Below, piece by piece: positions 3,948 through 18,885 of a stretch of DNA of 64,000 bases; the first letter of the stretch is position 1, and each line of letters begins with the position of its first letter. A program made the translations under genes and the position numbers. Source of the stretch: Oscillibacter valericigenes Sjm18-20 (GTDB taxonomy: Bacteria; Bacillota; Clostridia; Oscillospirales; Oscillospiraceae); the NCBI GenBank assembly GCA_000283575.1, contig AP012044.1, forward strand, positions 1,550,001-1,614,000. Reading direction: 5' to 3'. Below the pieces are notes generated by a model. It saw only the letters and a program-made list of their open reading frames with translations, made no database searches and had not been told where the DNA came from.

Positions 3948-4046
3948 TTATCATTTAAGAATAGACAGGCGCATTTGATCTTTGTAATAATCTACAAACA
4001 AAAAAAGAATTAACAAAAATTTGTTGGTTTTTTTGTGAAATTAAAT

Positions 4047-4076
4047 CTTGACAAAAATTATCAAGATTGCTACAGT
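4047..4076 (+). promoter_or_regulatory. Promoter overlapping a palindrome, likely Rrf2 operator
   Basis: TTGACA (4048-4053), 17-base spacer, TACAGT (4071-4076). The -35 and spacer coincide with an inverted repeat, CTTGA (4047-4051) and TCAAG (4061-4065), separated by an A/T core. Rrf2-family regulators commonly bind AT-rich dyads of this kind over their own promoter. Autoregulation is therefore likely but unproven. Confidence 0.6.
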
Positions 4077-4108
4077 ATAGAGGAACACAGGAAGGGGGAA
4101 TCGGCGGG

Positions 4109-4519
4109 TTGTTTATAACGAAGGAGACGGATTATGCGCTGAGAATCCTGCGGGCGCTGGCCGATGGGGAACGGCGCACGGCGGTGAGTCTGGCGGAGAG
4201 TGAACAGATTCCGCTGCAATTTGCCTATAAAATTCTGAAGAAGCTTGAAAAGGGAGGCGTTCTTCGAATTGTGCGGGGAGCGGACGGCGGCTGTCTTTTA
4301 ACCATCGGACTGGATCAGATCACTTTGTACCGACTCATGCAGATCATGGGGGAGGATGCTTTCGTGAGCTCCTGTATGAGGCCGGAGTATCAGTGCCAGT
4401 GGTGTCAGGCACATAATGAGACCGTGTGCCGGGCCCATCTTCATTTGAGGGAGATCCAGCAGACGCTGAACCGGGAACTGGATACCCACAGCCTACAGGA
4501 AATTTTCTTCGGGGATTGA
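4109..4519 (+). CDS. Rrf2-family transcriptional regulator with a cysteine cluster
   Basis: A 136-residue winged-helix regulator. I chose the TTG at 4109 because it gives the canonical Rrf2 start (M-F-I-T-K-E-T-D-Y-A-L-R) with a GGAAGGGGGA ribosome site; an ATG further upstream would overlap the -10. The HTH lies at about residues 5-70. A cluster of four Cys in SSCMRPEYQCQWCQAHNETVC-like spacing sits at about residues 92-112, comparable to the Fe-S ligand region of IscR/NsrR. It may therefore sense iron-sulfur status, O2 or NO. It is followed after 83 bases by the dehydrogenase-rubredoxin fusion and FprA, whose predicted oxygen or NO detoxification would fit such a sensor. The target genes are inferred from position only. 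Confidence 0.88.
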   Translation: MFITKETDYALRILRALADGERRTAVSLAESEQIPLQFAYKILKKLEKGGVLRIVRGADGGCLLTIGLDQITLYRLMQIMGEDAFVSSCMRPEYQCQWCQAHNETVCRAHLHLREIQQTLNRELDTHSLQEIFFGD

Positions 4520-4602
4520 GAAATTCATAAATTGCAGGAAACGGGAAGAAAGCAATTCAAGGATGAAACTTTAAAGATAAATATTTAAAAGGAGGAGACG
4601 GT

Positions 4603-6513
4603 ATGTTATTTCAGACCACACAACAACAGGAAGAGCTGCGCGCCAAAATCCGCGCGTTTGCGGAGGAGGAAATCAAGCCCCTGACATTCCTGTTGGACAA
4701 GGAAAACGAGTTTCCGGAGGACGCGGTGGCCAAGCTGGGAAGCATGGGCTATATGGGAATTCCGTATCCCAAGGAATACGGAGGTATGGGCCTGGACGTT
4801 TTGAGCTACGCCATCGCGGTGGAGGAGCTGGCCAGAGTGGACGGGGGCAGCGGCGTCATTTTGTCGGCCCACACCTCGCTGGGAACCTGGCCGATTTTCG
4901 CCTTTGGGACGGAGGAGCAAAAGCAGAAGTACCTGATTCCTCTGTGCAAGGGAGAGAAGCTGGGCGCTTTTGGGCTGACTGAGCCAAACGCGGGCTCCGA
5001 CGCCGGCGGCACCGAGACTACCGCCGTGGACAAAGGCGACCACTATCTTCTGAACGGGGGAAAGATCTTTATCACCAACGCCCCCAAGGCGGATACCTAT
5101 GTGGTTTTTGCCGTGACCACACCCGATATCGGGACCCGGGGCATTTCCGCGTTCATTGTGGAAAAAGGCTGGAAAGGCTTTGAGTTTGGGGACCATTACG
5201 ACAAGATGGGCATCCGTTCCTCCGCCACGGCCGAGTTGATTTTTAACAATGTGGAGGTCCCGAAAGAAAACCTGCTGGGCAAGGAGGGCCAGGGCTTTAA
5301 AATTGCCATGGCAACGCTGGACGGCGGACGCATCGGCATCGCGTCCCAGGCACTGGGAATCGCCCAGGGGGCCTTTGAGCAGGCGGTCAGCTATGCCAAG
5401 GAACGGGTTCAGTTTGGGAAGCCCATCGGATTCCAGCAGGCCATCTCCTTTAAAATCGCGGACATGGCCACCAAGCTGCGCACCGCGCGTCTGCTGGTGT
5501 ATTCCGCGGCGGAGCTGAAGGAGAACCACCAGCCCTATGGCATGGAGTCCGCTATGGCAAAGCAATACGCCTCGGACATTGCTCTGGAGGTGACCAACGA
5601 TGCGCTTCAGATTTTCGGAGGCACCGGATACCTGAAGGGCATGGAGGTGGAGCGGATGTACCGCGACGCCAAGATCACCACCATTTACGAGGGAACCAAC
5701 GAAATTCAGCGGGTCGTCATAGCCTCGCACATTTTGGGTAAGGAGCCAAGAACCGAGGGAACCTCCACAAGCCGCCCCCGTAAGCCCTCGCCAGTTACCG
5801 GGATTCGGAAGAAGGTCCTGTTTCGGGATGGCGGCGCCCAGGAGCAGGTGGAGGAGCTGGTGGACGCCCTGAAGAAAGACGGCTACGACTTTACCGTTGG
5901 GATTGCGCCGGATGTCCCCATCGCACTGGCCGAACGGGTGGTTTCCGCCGGAAAGGGCATTGGGGAGAAAAAGAACATGAAGCTGATCGAGCAGCTGGCC
6001 AAAGCCGCCGGCGCGGCCATCGGTTCCTCCCGTCCCGTGGCGGAGACGCTGAAGTATGTCCCTCTGAACCGCTATGTGGGTATGTCCGGGCAGAAATTCG
6101 TCGGCAATTTGTACATCGCCTGCGGCATCTCCGGCGCCATCCAACACCTGAAAGGGATCAAGGATGCCTCCACAATCGTGGCCATCAACAAGAACCCCAA
6201 TGCACCGATCTTTAAAAACTGCGATTACGGCATTGTGGGCGATCTCATGGAAGTTCTGCCCCTGCTGACCAAGGCTCTGGATACCGGAGAAAAGCAGCCG
6301 GCGCCTCCTATGGTTAAGATCAAGCGGCCCGTGATGCCAAAGCCCGAACCAATCGGACCCAGATATGTGTGCAGCGGCTGCGGCTATGAGTATGTGCCGG
6401 AGCTTGGGGACGAGGAGAGCGAGACCGCGCCGGGCACTCTGTTCAAGGATCTGCCGGACGACTGGATCTGCCCCGAGTGTGCCGAGAGCAAAGACCAGTT
6501 TATTGAAGCGTAA
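4603..6513 (+). CDS. Acyl-CoA dehydrogenase / EtfA FAD-domain / rubredoxin fusion
   Basis: A 636-residue three-part flavo-iron protein. Residues 1-380 form a complete short-chain acyl-CoA dehydrogenase, about 55-60% like the Bcd encoded at 15773 by eye, with the catalytic base at Glu363 in IYEGTNE. After a Ser/Pro/Arg-rich linker (about 383-400), residues 400-575 match the C-terminal FAD-binding domain of electron-transfer flavoprotein alpha ([35 protein letters not shown]). Residues 587-636 are a rubredoxin with Cys590/593 and Cys623/626. No EtfB partner is adjacent. The expected flow is acyl-CoA to FAD, to the ETF-type FAD, to the rubredoxin iron, and then probably to the flavodiiron protein encoded 21 bases downstream. 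Ribosome site AAAGGAGGAG. The substrate chain length is unknown; short chain is likely. The electron route is inference. Confidence 0.92.
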
Positions 6514-6534
6514 CGCGGAAAGGAGGAACAGATT

Positions 6535-7746
6535 ATGTATTGTGTAAGAAATGTGACGGAAGATCTGTACTGGGTCGGGGCCAATGACCATCGGCTGGCT
6601 CTGTTCGAAAATGCCTATCCGATTCCCCGGGGAGTGAGCTATAATTCGTATCTCCTGCTGGATGAGAAAACGGCTCTGTTTGACACGGTGGACTTTGGAA
6701 GTTGCCGTCAGCTGATTGAAAACATGACCCATGTACTGGACGGAAGGCCGCTGGACTATCTGGTTATCAACCACCTGGAGCCGGATCACGCGGGCAGCAT
6801 CGAGGAGGTGCTGCTGCGCTGGCCCAAGGTGAAGATCATCAGCAATGAAAAGGCCTTCATGCTGATGCGGCAGTTTGGTTTCCACGTGGACACCCACGAT
6901 CAGATCGAGGTGAAGGAAGGAGATACCTTCTCCTTCGGAACCCATACGGTCACCTTTGTGTTTGCGCCCATGGTGCACTGGCCCGAGGTGATGGTCACCT
7001 TCGACGTGACCAACGGCGTCCTCTTCTCCGCCGACGCTTTCGGAACCTTCGGCGCGCTGGACGGCAAGCTGTTTGCCGACGAGGTCAATTTCGACCGGGA
7101 CTGGCTGGATGACGCCCGCCGGTATCTGACCAACATCGTGGGGAAATACGGCCCGCATATCCAGCTGATCCTGAAAAAGGCCGGGACGATTCTGGATAAA
7201 ATCAAGTATATTTGCCCCTTGCACGGTCCCGTGTGGCGCAAGGACCTGATGTATTTCATTCAGAAATACGATACCTGGAGCCGGTATGTGCCGGAGGAAA
7301 AGGGTGTTCTGATTGTCTACGCCTCTATGTACGGCAACACGGAGGCGGCCGCCCAGGCACTGGCGGCGCGGCTGTGTGAAAAGGGACAGACGAATGTGGC
7401 GGTCTATGACGTGTCCAGCACCGACGTGTCCCAACTGATTTCCGAAAGCTTCAAGTACAGCCATCTGGTGCTGGCTTCCGTGACCTATAACCTGGGTATC
7501 TATCCGAAGATGCTCAATTTCCTGATGGACATGAAGGCGCTGAATGTCCAGAACCGGACGATTGCCCTGATCGAGAACGGTTCCTGGGCCTGCAAGTCCG
7601 GGGACTTGATGCAGAAGTTCATCAATGACGAGCTCAAGGATATGACCATTCTCAACGAGCGGGTGAGCATGGCCTCTTCTCTGGGGACGGATAAGGTTCC
7701 GGAGCTGGACGCTCTGGTAAACGCGATTCTGGAATCCATGGCATGA
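6535..7746 (+). CDS. fprA: FprA-type flavodiiron protein (rubredoxin:O2/NO oxidoreductase)
   Basis: A 403-residue A-type flavoprotein that reduces O2 to water or NO to N2O with electrons from rubredoxin, in the cytoplasm. The N-terminal metallo-beta-lactamase-like domain keeps every diiron ligand: His80, Glu82, Asp84 (in HLEPDH), His148, Asp167 and His230. The C-terminal flavodoxin domain (from about 255) has the FMN loop ASMYGNTE. The length is typical of the class. It follows the rubredoxin-containing fusion by 21 bases with its own AAAGGAGGA ribosome site and is followed by a long palindrome. The close linkage indicates that the fused rubredoxin is its electron donor and that the pair forms an O2/NO defence module. 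Whether it prefers O2 or NO cannot be read from the sequence. Confidence 0.95.
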   Translation: MYCVRNVTEDLYWVGANDHRLALFENAYPIPRGVSYNSYLLLDEKTALFDTVDFGSCRQLIENMTHVLDGRPLDYLVINHLEPDHAGSIEEVLLRWPKVKIISNEKAFMLMRQFGFHVDTHDQIEVKEGDTFSFGTHTVTFVFAPMVHWPEVMVTFDVTNGVLFSADAFGTFGALDGKLFADEVNFDRDWLDDARRYLTNIVGKYGPHIQLILKKAGTILDKIKYICPLHGPVWRKDLMYFIQKYDTWSRYVPEEKGVLIVYASMYGNTEAAAQALAARLCEKGQTNVAVYDVSSTDVSQLISESFKYSHLVLASVTYNLGIYPKMLNFLMDMKALNVQNRTIALIENGSWACKSGDLMQKFINDELKDMTILNERVSMASSLGTDKVPELDALVNAILESMA

Positions 7747-7752
7747 CAGGAT

Positions 7753-7798
7753 GACCGCCCCCGCCGCTGCAACTCGAGTTGCAGCGGCGGGGGCGGTC
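7753..7798. terminator. 46-base perfect palindrome after fprA
   Basis: The sequence from GACCGCCCCC at 7753 to GGGGGCGGTC ending at 7798 reads the same on both strands over all 46 bases, centred on CTCGAG. As RNA it would form a very strong hairpin. No clear T tract follows on the plus strand, so it may end transcription by structure alone or protect the 3' end. It is probably the end of the fprA transcript. Confidence 0.65.
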
Positions 7799-14077: not shown

Positions 14078-14854
14078 ATGGCGTTTGTAGAGTTGGAGCA
14101 CAAGGGTGACATCGCGGTCCTGACCATCAACCGTCCCGAGGCGCTGAACGCATTAAATGACGAAGTTATTTCACAGCTGGACAAGGTGTTGGATTCGATT
14201 GATTCCTCGTCTGTCCGGTGTTTGATCGTCACCGGTGCGGGGCAGAAGGCGTTTGTGGCCGGCGCGGATATCGCGCAGATGAGCGGGTTGACCAAGGCGG
14301 AGGGCGAAGTTTTCGGAAAGAACGGAAACGACGTGTTCCGCAAGCTGGAAACGCTCCCCATTCCCACCATCGCGGCGGTGAACGGCTTTGCTTTGGGCGG
14401 CGGCTGTGAGCTGTCCATGAGCTGTGATATCCGCCTTTGTGCCGACACGGCGGTCTTCGGACAGCCAGAGGTGGGTCTTGGCATCACGCCGGGCTTCGGC
14501 GGAACCCAGCGCATGGCCCGTCTCATCGGGCCTGGAAAAGCAAAGGAACTGATCTATACCGCCCGCAATATCAAGGCCCCGGAGGCCCTGAGTGTTGGGC
14601 TGGTACAGGCTGTCTATCCCGCCGACCAATTGCTGGCGGAGGCTGAGAAAATGGCGTATCGCATTGCCGGAAACGCACCCATTGCCGTCCGCGCCTGCAA
14701 GAAGGCTGTCAACGACGGACTGCAGGTGGACATGGACGCGGCCGTGAAAGTAGAGGAGAAGCTGTTCGGCTCCTGTTTTGAGACCAGGGATCAGAAGAAC
14801 GCCATGTCCGCTTTCATTGAGAAGCGTAAGCACGACCCGTTTATAAATGGCTGA
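14078..14854 (+). CDS. crt: Crotonase (3-hydroxybutyryl-CoA dehydratase)
   Basis: A 258-residue enoyl-CoA hydratase-fold enzyme that dehydrates 3-hydroxybutyryl-CoA to crotonyl-CoA. The oxyanion-hole segments AGADIAQM and GFALGGGCELSM and the two catalytic Glu regions (GGGCELSMSCD and PEVGLGITPG) are present. The length is exactly that of clostridial Crt. It is the first gene of an operon with hbd, bcd, etfB and etfA. No thiolase gene is present, so acetoacetyl-CoA must come from an enzyme encoded elsewhere. Ribosome site AAAGGAGGAAG. Confidence 0.96.
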   Translation: MAFVELEHKGDIAVLTINRPEALNALNDEVISQLDKVLDSIDSSSVRCLIVTGAGQKAFVAGADIAQMSGLTKAEGEVFGKNGNDVFRKLETLPIPTIAAVNGFALGGGCELSMSCDIRLCADTAVFGQPEVGLGITPGFGGTQRMARLIGPGKAKELIYTARNIKAPEALSVGLVQAVYPADQLLAEAEKMAYRIAGNAPIAVRACKKAVNDGLQVDMDAAVKVEEKLFGSCFETRDQKNAMSAFIEKRKHDPFING

Positions 14855-14912
14855 TTTATCAGCGTTTATGAAATAAATCCCACAAAATTATTTTATTAAT
14901 AGGAGGATCAGT

Positions 14913-15749
14913 ATGAAAGTTGCAGTTTTTGGCGCCGGTACCATGGGCAGCGGGATCGCTCAGGTTTTTGCGGCCAAGGGTCACACCGCTTTGATGTATG
15001 CAAGCTCCGTCGCTTCCGCACAGAAGCACAAGGATAAGCTGGCGGCGTCTTTGCAAAAGCGCGTCGAGAAGGGTAAGATGACCCAGGAGGCGAAGGATGC
15101 CCTGATGGCCAACGTGCTGGTGGAGGAGAAATCCGCCGCTGCGGACGCCGACCTCATCATTGAGTGCGTCAAGGAAGACATGGCCACCAAGAAAGAGCTT
15201 TTGAACGAGCTGGACGCCATGTGCAAGCCCGAAACCGTGTTCGCTTCCAACACCTCTTCTCTGTCCGTCACCGAAATGGGCAACGGCCTGAAGCACCCCG
15301 TCATCGGTATGCATTTCTTCAATCCCGTTCCCAGCATGAAGTTGGTGGAGGTCATCCGGGGCGCCAATACCACCCAGGAGACTTTTGATTACATCTTTAA
15401 ACTGGCCCAGGAGATCGGCAAGGATCCCGTGGAAGTTGCGGAGGCTCCTGGTTTTGTGGTCAATAAGATCCTCATCCCCATGATCAACGAAGCGATTGGT
15501 CTTGTGGAGACCGGCGTGGCCTCCGTGGGCGACATTGACAAGGCCATGATGCTTGGTGCAAACCATCCCATGGGTCCTCTGGCTCTGGGTGATTTCATCG
15601 GCTTGGATGTATGCCTGGCGATCATGGAAACTCTGTACAACGAGACCGGCGATTCCAAGTATCGTTCTGCGCTGCTTCTACGCAAGATGGTTCGCGGCGG
15701 TCTGTTGGGTAAGAAGACCGGCAAGGGCTTCTACGATTATTCCAAGTAA
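14913..15749 (+). CDS. hbd: 3-hydroxybutyryl-CoA dehydrogenase
   Basis: Reduces acetoacetyl-CoA to (S)-3-hydroxybutyryl-CoA with NAD(P)H. The 278-residue protein opens with the Rossmann fingerprint [13 protein letters not shown]. The catalytic His lies in GMHFFNPVP with its Glu partner in VEVIRG, and the C-terminal helical domain contains [16 protein letters not shown]. Second gene of the butyryl-CoA operon, 58 bases after crt, with TAGGAGGA upstream. Confidence 0.97.
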
Positions 15750-15772
15750 ATTCAATAGAAGGAGTAAAAGGT

Positions 15773-16915
15773 ATGGATTTTCATCTGTCAAACGAGCAGT
15801 TGATGCTTCGTAAGATGTACCGCGAGTTCGCCGAGACCGAAGTAAAGCCTCTGGCCGAGGAAATCGACGAAGAAGAGCGCTTCCCTATGGAGACTGTGGA
15901 AAAGATGGCCAAGCTGGGCATGATGGGTATTTACTTCCCGAAGGAATATGGCGGCGCGGGCGGTGACGTTCTCTCTTACGCCATGTGCGTGGAGGAGCTG
16001 GCCAAAGTTTGCGGCACTACGGCTGTTGTTGTCTCTGCCCACACTTCTTTGTGCTGCGCTCCCATTTTTGAGCATGGCACCGAGGAGCAGAAGCGCAAGT
16101 ATCTGCCTGACCTGCTTTCCGGCAAGAAGATCGGCGCGTTCGGTCTGACCGAGCCCGGTGCCGGCACGGATGCTTCCGGACAGCAGACTATCGCTGTTCT
16201 GGAGGGCGATCATTATGTTCTGAACGGAACGAAGTGCTTCATCACCAACGGCAACGTGGCCGACACCTTTGTGGTGTTCGCCATGACGGATAAGAAGGCT
16301 GGTAACCACGGCATTACCGCCTTCATTGTGGAGAAGGACTTCCCTGGTTTCTCTCAGGGCAAACACGAGAAGAAGATGGGTATTCACGGCAGTTCTACCT
16401 GCGATCTGATCTTTGAGGACTGCGTTGTTCCCAAGGAGAACCTGCTGGGCAAAGAGGGCAAGGGCTTTAAGGTCGCCATGCAGACTCTGGACGGCGGCCG
16501 CATCGGCATTGCAGCGCAGGCTCTGGGTTTGGCGGAGGGTGCCATTGACGAGGCTGTCAAGTATACCAAGGAGCGCGTCCAGTTCGGCAAGCGCCTGAGC
16601 CAGTTCCAAAACACCCAGTTCCAGCTGGCCGACATGCACTGCCGCACTCAGGCTGCGCAGCATCTGGTTTATGCTGCGGCAATGGGCAAGCAGAATCATG
16701 AGAATTACAGTGAAGCTTCGGCAATGGCAAAGCTATTTGCCGCTGAAACTGCTTCTGATGTGACTCGCCGCGCCGTACAGCTGTTCGGAGGCTATGGCTA
16801 CACCCGTGAGTATCCCGTGGAGCGCATGATGCGCGACGCGAAGATCACCGAGATCTATGAAGGTACTTCCGAGGCTCAGCGCATGGTCATTGCCAAGCAC
16901 ATGGGCGTGAAATAA
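15773..16915 (+). CDS. bcd: Butyryl-CoA dehydrogenase
   Basis: A 380-residue FAD enzyme that reduces crotonyl-CoA to butyryl-CoA, normally in a bifurcating complex with EtfAB that also reduces ferredoxin with NADH. It shows [14 protein letters not shown], the FAD-binding [15 protein letters not shown] and VQFGKRLSQFQ, and the catalytic base Glu363 in IYEGTSEAQ. It has no C-terminal extension, in contrast to the three-domain fusion at 4603 whose first domain is a close paralogue. Followed by etfB after 18 bases. Confidence 0.96.
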   Translation: MDFHLSNEQLMLRKMYREFAETEVKPLAEEIDEEERFPMETVEKMAKLGMMGIYFPKEYGGAGGDVLSYAMCVEELAKVCGTTAVVVSAHTSLCCAPIFEHGTEEQKRKYLPDLLSGKKIGAFGLTEPGAGTDASGQQTIAVLEGDHYVLNGTKCFITNGNVADTFVVFAMTDKKAGNHGITAFIVEKDFPGFSQGKHEKKMGIHGSSTCDLIFEDCVVPKENLLGKEGKGFKVAMQTLDGGRIGIAAQALGLAEGAIDEAVKYTKERVQFGKRLSQFQNTQFQLADMHCRTQAAQHLVYAAAMGKQNHENYSEASAMAKLFAAETASDVTRRAVQLFGGYGYTREYPVERMMRDAKITEIYEGTSEAQRMVIAKHMGVK

Positions 16916-16933
16916 ATAAGGAGGTAGAGAGTC

Positions 16934-17734
16934 ATGAAAATCATTGTAAGTGTAAAGCAGGTACCCGATACCTCCGGAAAGGTGGCGGTGAATCCGGATG
17001 GAACGCTGGACCGGGCGTCCATGCAGACCATCACCAACCCCGACGACCTGAACGCGGTGGAGGCCGCCCTGAAGCTGAAGGACGAGACGGGCTGCAAGGT
17101 CGTCGTGGTCACCATGGGTCCCCCTCCTGCGGCCGGGATGCTGCGGGAGATCATGGCCCGGGGCGCGGACGAGGGCGTTCTGGTCTCCGCCCGTGAGTTC
17201 GGCGGCAGCGATACATACGCCACTTCCCAGATCCTGGCCGCGGCTATCAGCCGCATCGGGGTGGAGAAGGACGACATCGTGATGTGCGGCCGTCAGGCCA
17301 TCGACGGCGACACCGCCCAGGTGGGCCCCCAGATCGCCGAGAAGCTGCACCTGCCCCAGGTGACTTACGCCGCCGACATTCAAAAGACCGGCGACACCAT
17401 CACCGTCAAGCGCATGCTGGAGGACGGCTACATGACCATCAAGGTCAAGACGCCGTGCCTTCTGACCTGCATTAAGGAGCTGAACACCCCCCGTTACATG
17501 AGCGTGGGCGGCATTTTCGAGGCTTATGGCAAGCCGCTTGCGACCTTCGATTACGAGACGCTGAAAAACGATCCCCTGATCGATCCCACCACCATCGGCC
17601 TGAAGGGTTCTCCCACCAATATTCTCACATCCTTCACGCCGCCCCAGAAGGGCGCGGGCATGATGCTGGAGGGCGCCGACAAAGCGAGCTGCGAGAAGCT
17701 GGCGGGGATTCTGACCGCCAAGCACATCATCTGA
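16934..17734 (+). CDS. etfB: Electron-transfer flavoprotein, beta subunit
   Basis: A 266-residue EtfB that forms with EtfA the flavin carrier which takes electrons from NADH and passes them to Bcd and ferredoxin. The start MKIIVSVKQVPDTS and the loop DTAQVGPQIAEKL (EtfB signature area) are present, as are LKTPC-like residues near 175. Ribosome site AAGGAGGTAGAGAG. It sits between bcd and etfA, as in clostridial bcd complexes. Confidence 0.95.
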   Translation: MKIIVSVKQVPDTSGKVAVNPDGTLDRASMQTITNPDDLNAVEAALKLKDETGCKVVVVTMGPPPAAGMLREIMARGADEGVLVSAREFGGSDTYATSQILAAAISRIGVEKDDIVMCGRQAIDGDTAQVGPQIAEKLHLPQVTYAADIQKTGDTITVKRMLEDGYMTIKVKTPCLLTCIKELNTPRYMSVGGIFEAYGKPLATFDYETLKNDPLIDPTTIGLKGSPTNILTSFTPPQKGAGMMLEGADKASCEKLAGILTAKHII

Positions 17735-17751
17735 GAAAGGGGTAATTGAAC

Positions 17752-18885
17752 ATGTCTTTTAACAATACGGATATCGCTGCTTTCAAGGATGTATGGGTGT
17801 TCTGCGAGCAGCGTCAGGGCAAGCTGATGCCCACCGATTTTGAGCTGATCTCCGAAGGACGGAAGCTGGCGGACGAGCTGGGCGTGGATCTGTGCGGCCT
17901 GCTGCTGGGCGACAAGGTCGAGGGTCTGGCCAAAGAGCTTGGCGGCTACGGCGCGGACAAGGTCTATGTCTGCGACAGCCCCATGTTGAAAAACTACACC
18001 ACCGGCGGCTACACCACGGCAATCTGCCAGGTGATCGAGGAGCTGAAGCCCGAGGTCATGCTGTTCGGCGCCACCAACATCGGCCGGGACCTGGGCCCCC
18101 GCTGCGCCGCCCGCCTGCACACCGGCCTTTGCGCGGACTGCACGCATCTGGACGTGGATATGCCCATCTACAAGGACTTTCTGCGGGAGGCGTCCACTCT
18201 TGCCCCGGAGAAGATCGACGGATTGAACACCGCCGTGGTTCTGGGCGAGAAGCACGACGTGTCCCGGGACCTGAAGATGACCCGCCCTGCGTTCGGCGGC
18301 CATCTGATGGCCTCCATCATCTGCCCGAGGTTCCGTCCCGCCATGGCGACGGTGCGTCCGGGCGTGATGAAGAAGAATCCTTTCGACCAGGCCAAGGCGG
18401 ATGCCTGTGAGATCGTGAAGCCCGCCTTCACAGTGACCGAAGATGACGTCCAGACCGAGGTGGTCGAGGTCGTCAAGGCCGCGAAGAAGCTGGTGGATCT
18501 GATCGGCGCGGACTTCATCGTCTCCGTCGGCCGCGGCATCAGCAAGGATGTTGCTGGCGGTATCAAGCTGGCGGAAGAGCTGGCAGCCGAGCTGGGCGGC
18601 GTTGTGGGCGGCTCCCGCGCCACCATCGACTCCGGGTGGCTGTCCGCGGACCATCAGGTGGGCCAGACGGGCAAGACCGTCCATCCGAAGGTGTACGTCG
18701 CTCTGGGCATTTCCGGCGCCATCCAGCACAAGGCCGGCATGCAGGATTCCGAGTGCATCATCGCGGTGAACAAGAACGACACCGCCCCCATCTTTGAGAT
18801 CGCCGACTACGGCATCTGCGGCGACCTCTTCAAGGTTACCCCCATGCTCACCGAGGCCATTAGAGCCGCCAAGGCCGCAAAGTAA
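17752..18885 (+). CDS. etfA: Electron-transfer flavoprotein, alpha subunit
   Basis: A 377-residue EtfA with an N-terminal alpha/beta domain and the C-terminal FAD domain. The FAD-binding signatures are [41 protein letters not shown] and DYGICGD. The start is placed at the ATG 8 bases after AAAGGGGT; a TTG two codons earlier is less likely. It closes the crt operon and is followed by a strong terminator. Its FAD domain provides the internal comparison showing that the fusion at 4603 carries an EtfA domain. Confidence 0.95.
   Translation: MSFNNTDIAAFKDVWVFCEQRQGKLMPTDFELISEGRKLADELGVDLCGLLLGDKVEGLAKELGGYGADKVYVCDSPMLKNYTTGGYTTAICQVIEELKPEVMLFGATNIGRDLGPRCAARLHTGLCADCTHLDVDMPIYKDFLREASTLAPEKIDGLNTAVVLGEKHDVSRDLKMTRPAFGGHLMASIICPRFRPAMATVRPGVMKKNPFDQAKADACEIVKPAFTVTEDDVQTEVVEVVKAAKKLVDLIGADFIVSVGRGISKDVAGGIKLAEELAAELGGVVGGSRATIDSGWLSADHQVGQTGKTVHPKVYVALGISGAIQHKAGMQDSECIIAVNKNDTAPIFEIADYGICGDLFKVTPMLTEAIRAAKAAK

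What the first reader, a model, noticed from the sequence alone, without database searches (positions are those of the whole stretch)
4047..7798. Acyl-CoA dehydrogenase, ETF and rubredoxin fused in one chain beside a flavodiiron protein: a built-in acyl-CoA-to-O2/NO pathway
Seen: one 636-residue ORF joins a Bcd-like dehydrogenase (Glu363), the FAD domain of EtfA and a rubredoxin (Cys590/593/623/626). It lies 21 bases before fprA with all six diiron ligands, and an Rrf2 regulator with four clustered Cys lies upstream. Known: flavodiiron proteins take electrons from rubredoxin, and ETF takes them from acyl-CoA dehydrogenases. Inference: the operon lets a butyrate-type anaerobe send acyl-CoA electrons to O2 or NO without NADH or a separate ETF. 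The EtfA-type domain without EtfB is unusual and could work as a one-protein ETF. I do not know of a biochemical description of this whole arrangement.
Basis: partly seen in the sequence, partly recalled or inferred. Interest (0 to 1): 0.88.

Follow-up and report, generated by a model that had tools for sequence, protein, structure and literature searches.

The report
Butyryl-CoA-to-oxygen enzyme pair, already described
Two neighbouring genes let a butyrate-type anaerobe dispose of oxygen with electrons from a fermentation intermediate; the system has already been characterised in another bacterium, and what this study adds is a likely DNA on/off switch for it and a shorter relative of its main enzyme.

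Summary
Window 4603-6513 encodes one 636-residue protein (butyryl-CoA-dehydrogenase-like domain, FAD domain of EtfA, rubredoxin), 21 nt before a flavodiiron protein (FDP) gene with all diiron ligands. The arrangement is not new: it is the butyryl-CoA:oxygen oxidoreductase (BOOR) characterised from Fusobacterium nucleatum in 2024, and its Rrf2 neighbour in gut Clostridia is in a July 2026 preprint. The characterised enzyme reduces O2 but not NO, so the 'or NO' half of the inference is unsupported. FDP linkage is near complete: 78 of 80 loci, the other two ending at contig ends. Two things were not found in the papers I could read. First, a palindrome (core TTGAC-N7-RTCNA) lies over the promoter before rrf2 in 45 of 46 readable Rrf2-linked loci and in 0 of 30 loci without Rrf2; a second copy lies before BCR in 32 of 38 loci, but not in this window. 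Second, a rubredoxin-less two-domain relative (dehydrogenase plus EtfA FAD domain) stands head-to-head with an FDP gene in 12 of 23 loci examined (all one genus) and lies inside butyrate-type operons in others. The window locus itself is an ordinary ortholog of a known system.

The parts
4044..4068 (.). palindromic operator-like site AATCTTGACAAAAATTATCAAGATT (8-nt arms, 9-nt spacer), predicted binding site of the Rrf2 protein
   Evidence: inverted repeat; core TTGAC-N7-RTCNA in 45 of 46 readable Rrf2-linked loci, shuffles mean 0.05, 0 of 30 loci without adjacent rrf2; binding itself untested
4048..4076 (+). promoter-like TTGACA-17-TACAGT overlapped by the palindrome
   Evidence: 10 of 12 matches; 3 promoter-like sites found against 1.8 expected, and another 10-of-12 site at 3962-3991, so the scan alone is not evidence; -10 columns 28, 29, 33 carry 1.65 bits each across 46 loci
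4109..4519 (+). Rrf2-family regulator, TTG start, Asp8 and Cys 89/96/107
   Evidence: PF02082; conserved residues in 48-49 of 49
4603..6513 (+). BCR: acyl-CoA dehydrogenase - EtfA FAD domain - rubredoxin fusion, 636 aa
4618..5733 (+). acyl-CoA dehydrogenase domains (residues 6-377), Glu363 catalytic base
   Evidence: fold match 4l1f Z 56.0, rmsd 1.6, 379 residues
5920..6162 (+). EtfA C-terminal FAD-binding domain (residues 440-520)
   Evidence: PF00766
6361..6501 (+). rubredoxin domain (residues 587-633), Cys 590/593/623/626
   Evidence: PF00301; Cys conserved in all 80-81 aligned sequences
6535..7746 (+). flavodiiron protein without fused rubredoxin (class A type), 403 aa
   Evidence: PF19583, PF00258; seven metal-site positions conserved in 71 of 71
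7753..7798 (.). perfect 23-nt-arm inverted repeat after the FDP gene, possible terminator without a T run
   Evidence: not listed by the terminator scan

Best explanation
The operon is a BOOR (butyryl-CoA:oxygen oxidoreductase) with its own Rrf2 switch. The dehydrogenase part oxidises butyryl-CoA, or a similar short acyl-CoA, to the enoyl-CoA. Electrons pass from its FAD to the tethered EtfA-type FAD, then to the rubredoxin iron, then to the FMN and diiron site of the neighbouring FDP, where O2 becomes water. Crotonyl-CoA returns to the ordinary Bcd-EtfAB pathway encoded 8 kb away. The Rrf2 protein probably carries an Fe-S cluster on Asp8 and three Cys, binds the palindrome over the promoter and represses the operon until O2 or related stress damages the cluster. 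Shown here: parts, residues, gene order, linkage, conservation of the site. Shown by others for F. nucleatum: the reaction, O2 to water, no NO reductase activity. Inferred: that this ortholog behaves the same, its substrate, the cluster, and the repression.
For: Domains and residues. FDP linkage 78 of 80 and 47 of 50. Catalytic Glu 81 of 81, FDP metal positions 71 of 71. Published system with the same domain order and FDP neighbour (passages). Enoyl-CoA hydratase, 3-hydroxyacyl-CoA dehydrogenase, Bcd, EtfB, EtfA genes at 14078-18885, so butyryl-CoA is probably made. Site before rrf2 45 of 46, none in 30 loci without rrf2; second site 32 of 38.
Against: One three-domain gene (L150) has no FDP in the 1500 nt after it, and 8 of the 47 linked cases have gaps of 218-1269 nt. 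The window lacks the second site. At a looser score (10) 2 of 33 loci without rrf2 also show a site. 33 of 80 loci have no rrf2 detected just upstream (3 of them with only 208-324 nt to look at), so the regulator is not part of every such operon.
Confidence: 0.85

Rival explanations
1. The pair is mainly a nitric oxide reductase fed by acyl-CoA electrons, and the Rrf2 protein is an NsrR-like NO sensor.
For: The FDP's best curated and solved-structure matches are NO-reducing flavodiiron proteins. Rrf2 has Asp8 and three conserved Cys, the features the preprint compares with NsrR.
Against: The F. nucleatum complex showed no NO reductase activity (review). The PRK11921 flavorubredoxin and NsrR models are far below their cut-offs (221.5 of 635; 32.3 of 182).
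Confidence: 0.08
2. BCR's main electron acceptor is not the neighbouring FDP but rubrerythrin or another rubredoxin-dependent peroxide or O2 scavenger.
For: The preprint reports rubrerythrin near BOOR in some genomes. One of the three-domain genes has no FDP next to it (L150).
Against: FDP linkage is near complete and the F. nucleatum proteins form a complex.
Confidence: 0.05
3. The fusion is a normal enoyl-CoA reductase or acyl-CoA dehydrogenase of another pathway (acryloyl-, isovaleryl-, caffeyl-type), and oxygen removal is secondary.
For: The best curated model is acryloyl-CoA reductase AcrC (491.6 bits), but below its cut-off of 640. Two-domain relatives lie inside butyrate-type operons.
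Against: AcrC is also the top model for the window's ordinary Bcd (541.9 bits), so it only says short-chain type. The rubredoxin and FDP partners fit no known reductive pathway (inference).
Confidence: 0.08
4. The conserved sequence before rrf2 is only a strong promoter with a consensus -35 box, not an operator.
For: TTGACA is the -35 consensus and the sites were aligned on the left half.
Against: The right half, which is no promoter element, carries 1.74-1.85 bits at columns 18, 19 and 21; 1547 TTGAC occurrences in 81 loci give only 60 with N7-RTCNA, most of them these sites; 0 of 30 loci without rrf2; a second copy lies before BCR.
Confidence: 0.1

Closest known systems
BOOR of Fusobacterium nucleatum (BCR FN1424 + FDP FN1423; Bystrom and Wolthers 2024, Biochemistry 63:2352; paper not held, seen through passages of PMC12288474, PMC12630350 and PMC13404960)
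   Same: Domain order ACAD - EtfA C-terminal domain - rubredoxin; bicistronic with an FDP; FDP without fused rubredoxin
   Different: Different phylum; window has an Rrf2 gene and operator upstream (whether F. nucleatum has one was not tested); sequence identity to FN1424 not measured
BOOR with adjacent Rrf2 (C0FN14 type) in Roseburia, Eisenbergiella, Faecalibacterium (preprint PMC13404960, passages)
   Same: Rrf2, BCR and FDP side by side in Clostridia; Asp8 and conserved Cys
   Different: The preprint's main text holds no operator, palindrome, promoter or binding-site statement; the site described here is an addition
NAD(P)H-fed FDP systems: Hrb-FprA of Moorella thermoacetica; multidomain FDP of Clostridioides difficile (mentioned in PMC12288474)
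   Same: Flavodiiron O2 (or NO) reduction in anaerobes, rubredoxin in the chain
   Different: Electrons come from NAD(P)H, not acyl-CoA
Bcd-EtfAB bifurcating complexes (4l1f, 5ol2)
   Same: Dehydrogenase fold (Z 56.0 and 55.6) and an EtfA FAD domain
   Different: No EtfB and no EtfA N-terminal domain in the fusion; rubredoxin and FDP instead

Membership tests
BOOR | ACAD - EtfA C-terminal domain - rubredoxin in one chain | tested here: met
BOOR | FDP gene in the same operon | tested here: met
   21-nt gap, same strand
BOOR | catalytic Glu, rubredoxin Cys and diiron ligands present | tested here: met
BOOR | sequence kinship with FN1424/FN1423 | not tested
BOOR | alpha4beta4 complex of BCR and FDP | not testable with these tools
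   reported for F. nucleatum
BOOR | butyryl-CoA-dependent O2 reduction to water, no NO reductase activity | not testable with these tools
   reported for F. nucleatum
Class A flavodiiron protein | beta-lactamase-like diiron domain plus flavodoxin, nothing else | tested here: met
   PF19583, PF00258; 403 aa
Rrf2 Fe-S regulator | Rrf2 domain with Asp8 and three Cys | tested here: met
   cluster itself not testable
Rrf2 Fe-S regulator | palindromic operator with 9-nt spacer (as TGTAA-N9-TTACA in PMC9218516) | tested here: met
   CTTGA-N9-TCAAG in the window; core in 45 of 46 readable loci; binding untested
NsrR or IscR proper (NCBIfam equivalogs) | score over the curated cut-off | tested here: not met
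   NsrR 32.3 of 182; IscR 43.1 of 207.55
Complete or bifurcating ETF | EtfB and EtfA N-terminal domain (PF01012) | tested here: not met
   only PF00766 in the fusion; ordinary EtfB and EtfA are separate genes at 16934-18885

The most novel reading that the evidence does not exclude
Rubredoxin is optional in this family. The core is a two-domain ACAD-EtfA_C protein that acts as a one-protein ETF: in one Clostridia lineage it feeds a divergently encoded FDP, directly or through free rubredoxin, and in others it serves as the butyryl-CoA/crotonyl-CoA enzyme of a butyrate-type operon without EtfB. The three-domain BOOR of the window is a rubredoxin-tethered form, kept in many species under a dedicated Rrf2 repressor with one or two conserved operators.
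Probability: 0.4. Interest if true: 0.6.

Novelty: already known. Interest (0 to 1): 0.34.

Why it matters
BOOR ties oxygen removal to butyrate metabolism in anaerobes, so its control decides when such bacteria give up butyrate for oxygen tolerance. A specific, conserved operator makes the published regulator hypothesis directly testable by gel shift or footprint. The rubredoxin-less relatives are a natural experiment on whether an EtfA FAD alone can feed a flavodiiron protein or replace EtfB.

Tried and rejected
NO reduction as the main role: put low on the published absence of NO activity. A wider regulon in the own genome: a strict pattern with 3 mismatches and a relaxed one with 2 listed other places, none with the full core TTGAC-N7-RTCNA; three related near-sites on contig C2 were not followed up. 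Second operator in the window: best score -10.4 between rrf2 and BCR, so none.

The second (53 sequences including the window's Bcd and EtfA) was better, pLDDT 82.6, pTM 0.63, with low-confidence stretches at 126-136, 201-203, 383-398 and 570-580. In the structure comparisons only residues 1-382 were really tested; no ETF or rubredoxin chain is among the rows shown, which excludes nothing. Cofactor distances could not be measured.

Two-domain form as an artefact of a split gene: no rubredoxin-like C..CG[YWF] motif within 400 nt downstream in any of the 23. L155 (a further two-domain match of G734, with a stop inside) gave no ORF over 480 residues and was dropped.

Literature on two-domain ACAD-EtfA_C: searches (3 papers, all already known to me; 19 papers, listing only; none) showed nothing on it; the 2024 Biochemistry paper is not held and may discuss it. 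PMC12288474, PMC13404960, PMC12630350 and PMC9218516 were seen as passages; every other paper as a search listing.
Full report
WHAT IS THERE. On the + strand the window encodes an Rrf2-family regulator (4109-4519), a 636-residue fusion (4603-6513) and a flavodiiron protein (6535-7746). Pfam places acyl-CoA dehydrogenase domains at residues 6-377, the EtfA FAD-binding domain at 440-520 and rubredoxin at 587-633. The gap before the FDP gene is 21 nt. A perfect inverted repeat with 23-nt arms follows the FDP gene (7753-7798).

IS IT MORE THAN CHANCE. A scan of one genome per species gave 80 loci (the best 80 of 377 confirmed stretches); 79 match the fusion over at least 635 residues and one, L061, to residue 605 where its contig ends. 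These are close homologues (81-88% identity in the best segment). An FDP gene follows in 78 of 80, at gaps of 17-572 nt; the other two contigs end 0 and 5 nt after the match. Eight of those 47 gaps are 218-1269 nt, so something may lie between. Glu363 is conserved in 81 of 81 aligned fusions (one of 82 dropped for length) and the seven FDP positions checked in 71 of 71 (9 of 80 dropped as shorter than 350 aa). By query coverage the three-domain protein is present in 31 of 391 genomes drawn from the window's class, in 5 of 398 drawn from its phylum (a sixth match, G092, is two-domain), and in 21 of the 36 same-genus genomes searched besides the window's own. It is widespread but patchy.

WHAT IT IS. 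The same arrangement was characterised from Fusobacterium nucleatum: BCR and FDP form a complex that oxidises butyryl-CoA and reduces O2 to water, without NO reductase activity, and is called BOOR (PMC12288474, passages; also PMC12630350, passages). The original paper is not held. The review says that many Firmicutes carry BOOR. A July 2026 preprint reports an Rrf2 regulator beside BOOR in gut Clostridia, with the BCR architecture in 123 of 149 neighbourhoods (PMC13404960, passages). A copy lies on a record filed as a plasmid of Vescimonas fastidiosa, with rrf2, BCR and FDP in the same order.

HOW IT LIKELY WORKS. The route is acyl-CoA to dehydrogenase FAD, EtfA FAD, rubredoxin iron, FDP FMN, diiron site and O2. 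The dehydrogenase part compares best with the Bcd-type chains of bifurcating systems (4l1f Z 56.0, rmsd 1.6, 379 residues; 5ol2 Z 55.6, rmsd 1.6, 377 residues). The EtfA part shares the [13 protein letters not shown] and DYGI stretches with the window's own EtfA, so FAD binding is likely (inference). Two poorly predicted stretches, 383-398 and 570-580, separate the domains and would let the two small domains move (inference). Genes for an enoyl-CoA hydratase, a 3-hydroxyacyl-CoA dehydrogenase, Bcd, EtfB and EtfA stand at 14078-18885, so butyryl-CoA is probably made.

THE SWITCH. A palindrome at 4044-4068 covers a consensus -35 box and the 17-nt spacer to TACAGT. The promoter scan alone is weak: 3 sites against 1.8 in shuffles, and another site at 3962 scores as high. 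The comparison is stronger. Of 80 loci, plasmid locus L087 and the window, 49 have rrf2 just before BCR (47 of 80, plus L087 and the window; 3 of the 33 others have only 208-324 nt to look at). In 46 of the 49 the 160 nt before rrf2 could be read (L018, L021 and L028 were dropped as too short or holding N). TTGAC-N7-RTCNA is present in 45 of 46 (not L074), against a mean of 0.05 and a maximum of 1 in 100 dinucleotide shuffles, and in 0 of 30 loci with BCR, at least 400 nt upstream and no adjacent rrf2. The right half, which is no promoter element, carries 1.74-1.85 bits at columns 18, 19 and 21. A second copy lies between rrf2 and BCR in 32 of the 38 loci with at least 40 readable nt there (score 15 or more; none in 30 shuffles; 0 of 33 loci without rrf2). 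At score 10 the figures are 33 of 38 and 2 of 33; at 20 they are 24 of 38 and 0 of 33. The window is one of the five that lack it at every score. The geometry matches the Rrf2 operator TGTAA-N9-TTACA (PMC9218516, passages). A likeness to the E. coli IscR type 1 site is recalled, not tested.

IS THE SWITCH DEDICATED. In the own genome no other listed place has the full core. In six other genomes a relaxed search finds BOOR sites in five (two have both sites, one only its second, one has none); the further hits are about as many as with the reversed control pattern, except in G948, which has somewhat more. So the regulator looks mainly local, but this is not proven. The preprint's main text has no hit for operator, palindrom, promoter, binding site or binding motif. 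Limits: the loci are related species, and no binding was measured.

THE TWO-DOMAIN RELATIVES. Searches also gave proteins with the dehydrogenase and the EtfA FAD domain but no rubredoxin (Pfam on two of them). I examined 23 of the many matches. Twelve, all from one genus, stand head-to-head with an FDP gene 40-44% identical to the window's. L188 has an FDP gene downstream on the same strand. L197 lies just before a three-domain BCR-FDP pair. Nine have no FDP among the three genes on either side; of these L154, L184 and L185 lie between a 3-hydroxyacyl-CoA dehydrogenase and a CoA-transferase gene, and L186 follows enoyl-CoA hydratase and 3-hydroxyacyl-CoA dehydrogenase relatives. The FDP metal positions are intact in 14 of 14. 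L194 and L196 have Asp where Glu363 is expected, so these two may not be working dehydrogenases. All 12 genomes with the head-to-head pair also encode free rubredoxin and a three-domain fusion, so free rubredoxin could serve as carrier. In the quick tree the two Bcd rows fall among two-domain rows, and the two-domain label needs three changes. That fits two-domain first, rubredoxin gained, then lost once, but it rests on long branches.

A biochemical description exists, NO is unsupported, and the fourth clustered Cys of the regulator is not conserved (7 of 49). The reading of the electron route was right.

VERDICT. A known system, correctly spotted. The operator and the two-domain relatives are the parts not found in the papers I could read.

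Noticed in passing
L189, L191-L196, L198-L202 (head-to-head FDP), L188, L197; L154, L184-L186 (butyrate-type operons): Rubredoxin-less two-domain ACAD-EtfA_C proteins, often next to an FDP gene, elsewhere inside butyrate-type operons without etfB beside them.
   Followed up: partly
window 16934-18885; own genome near C1:352k, 2.711M and 3.845M: The window's etfB and etfA are 99.5-100% identical in DNA to three other copies whose bcd is only 61% identical in protein to the window's; the three other copies are 99.8-99.9% identical to each other over 3.1-3.4 kb. This looks like homogenised etfBA serving two kinds of Bcd. A truncated fifth etfA lies near C1:2.345M.
   Followed up: partly
L087 (plasmid pMM35_02, Vescimonas fastidiosa, NZ_AP023417.1): rrf2-BCR-FDP on a record filed as a plasmid, followed within 8 kb by nitroreductase, MBL-fold protein, thioredoxin, thioredoxin reductase, a second Rrf2, a transcriptional repressor and ferritin: an oxygen-defence cluster on an extrachromosomal element.
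   Followed up: no
L191-L193, L202 intergenic regions between FDP and two-domain genes: These regions lack the TTGAC site but share a GATTATT(A/G)TTATC-like stretch, reminiscent of Fur or PerR boxes (recalled, not tested).
   Followed up: no
own genome contig C2: 5757, 8890, 15531: Three similar near-sites (CTTGACAA-N-GTATGTACA type) on the small second contig, one core base off the operator; perhaps sites of another Rrf2-type regulator.
   Followed up: no
L052 5001-6908: The fusion of this MAG carries one in-frame stop, perhaps a broken gene or a sequencing error.
   Followed up: no
BCR residues about 564-585: The linker between EtfA domain and rubredoxin (PAPPMVK-KRP..PKPEP-G) is strongly conserved although predicted as flexible, which hints at a docking role.
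   Followed up: no
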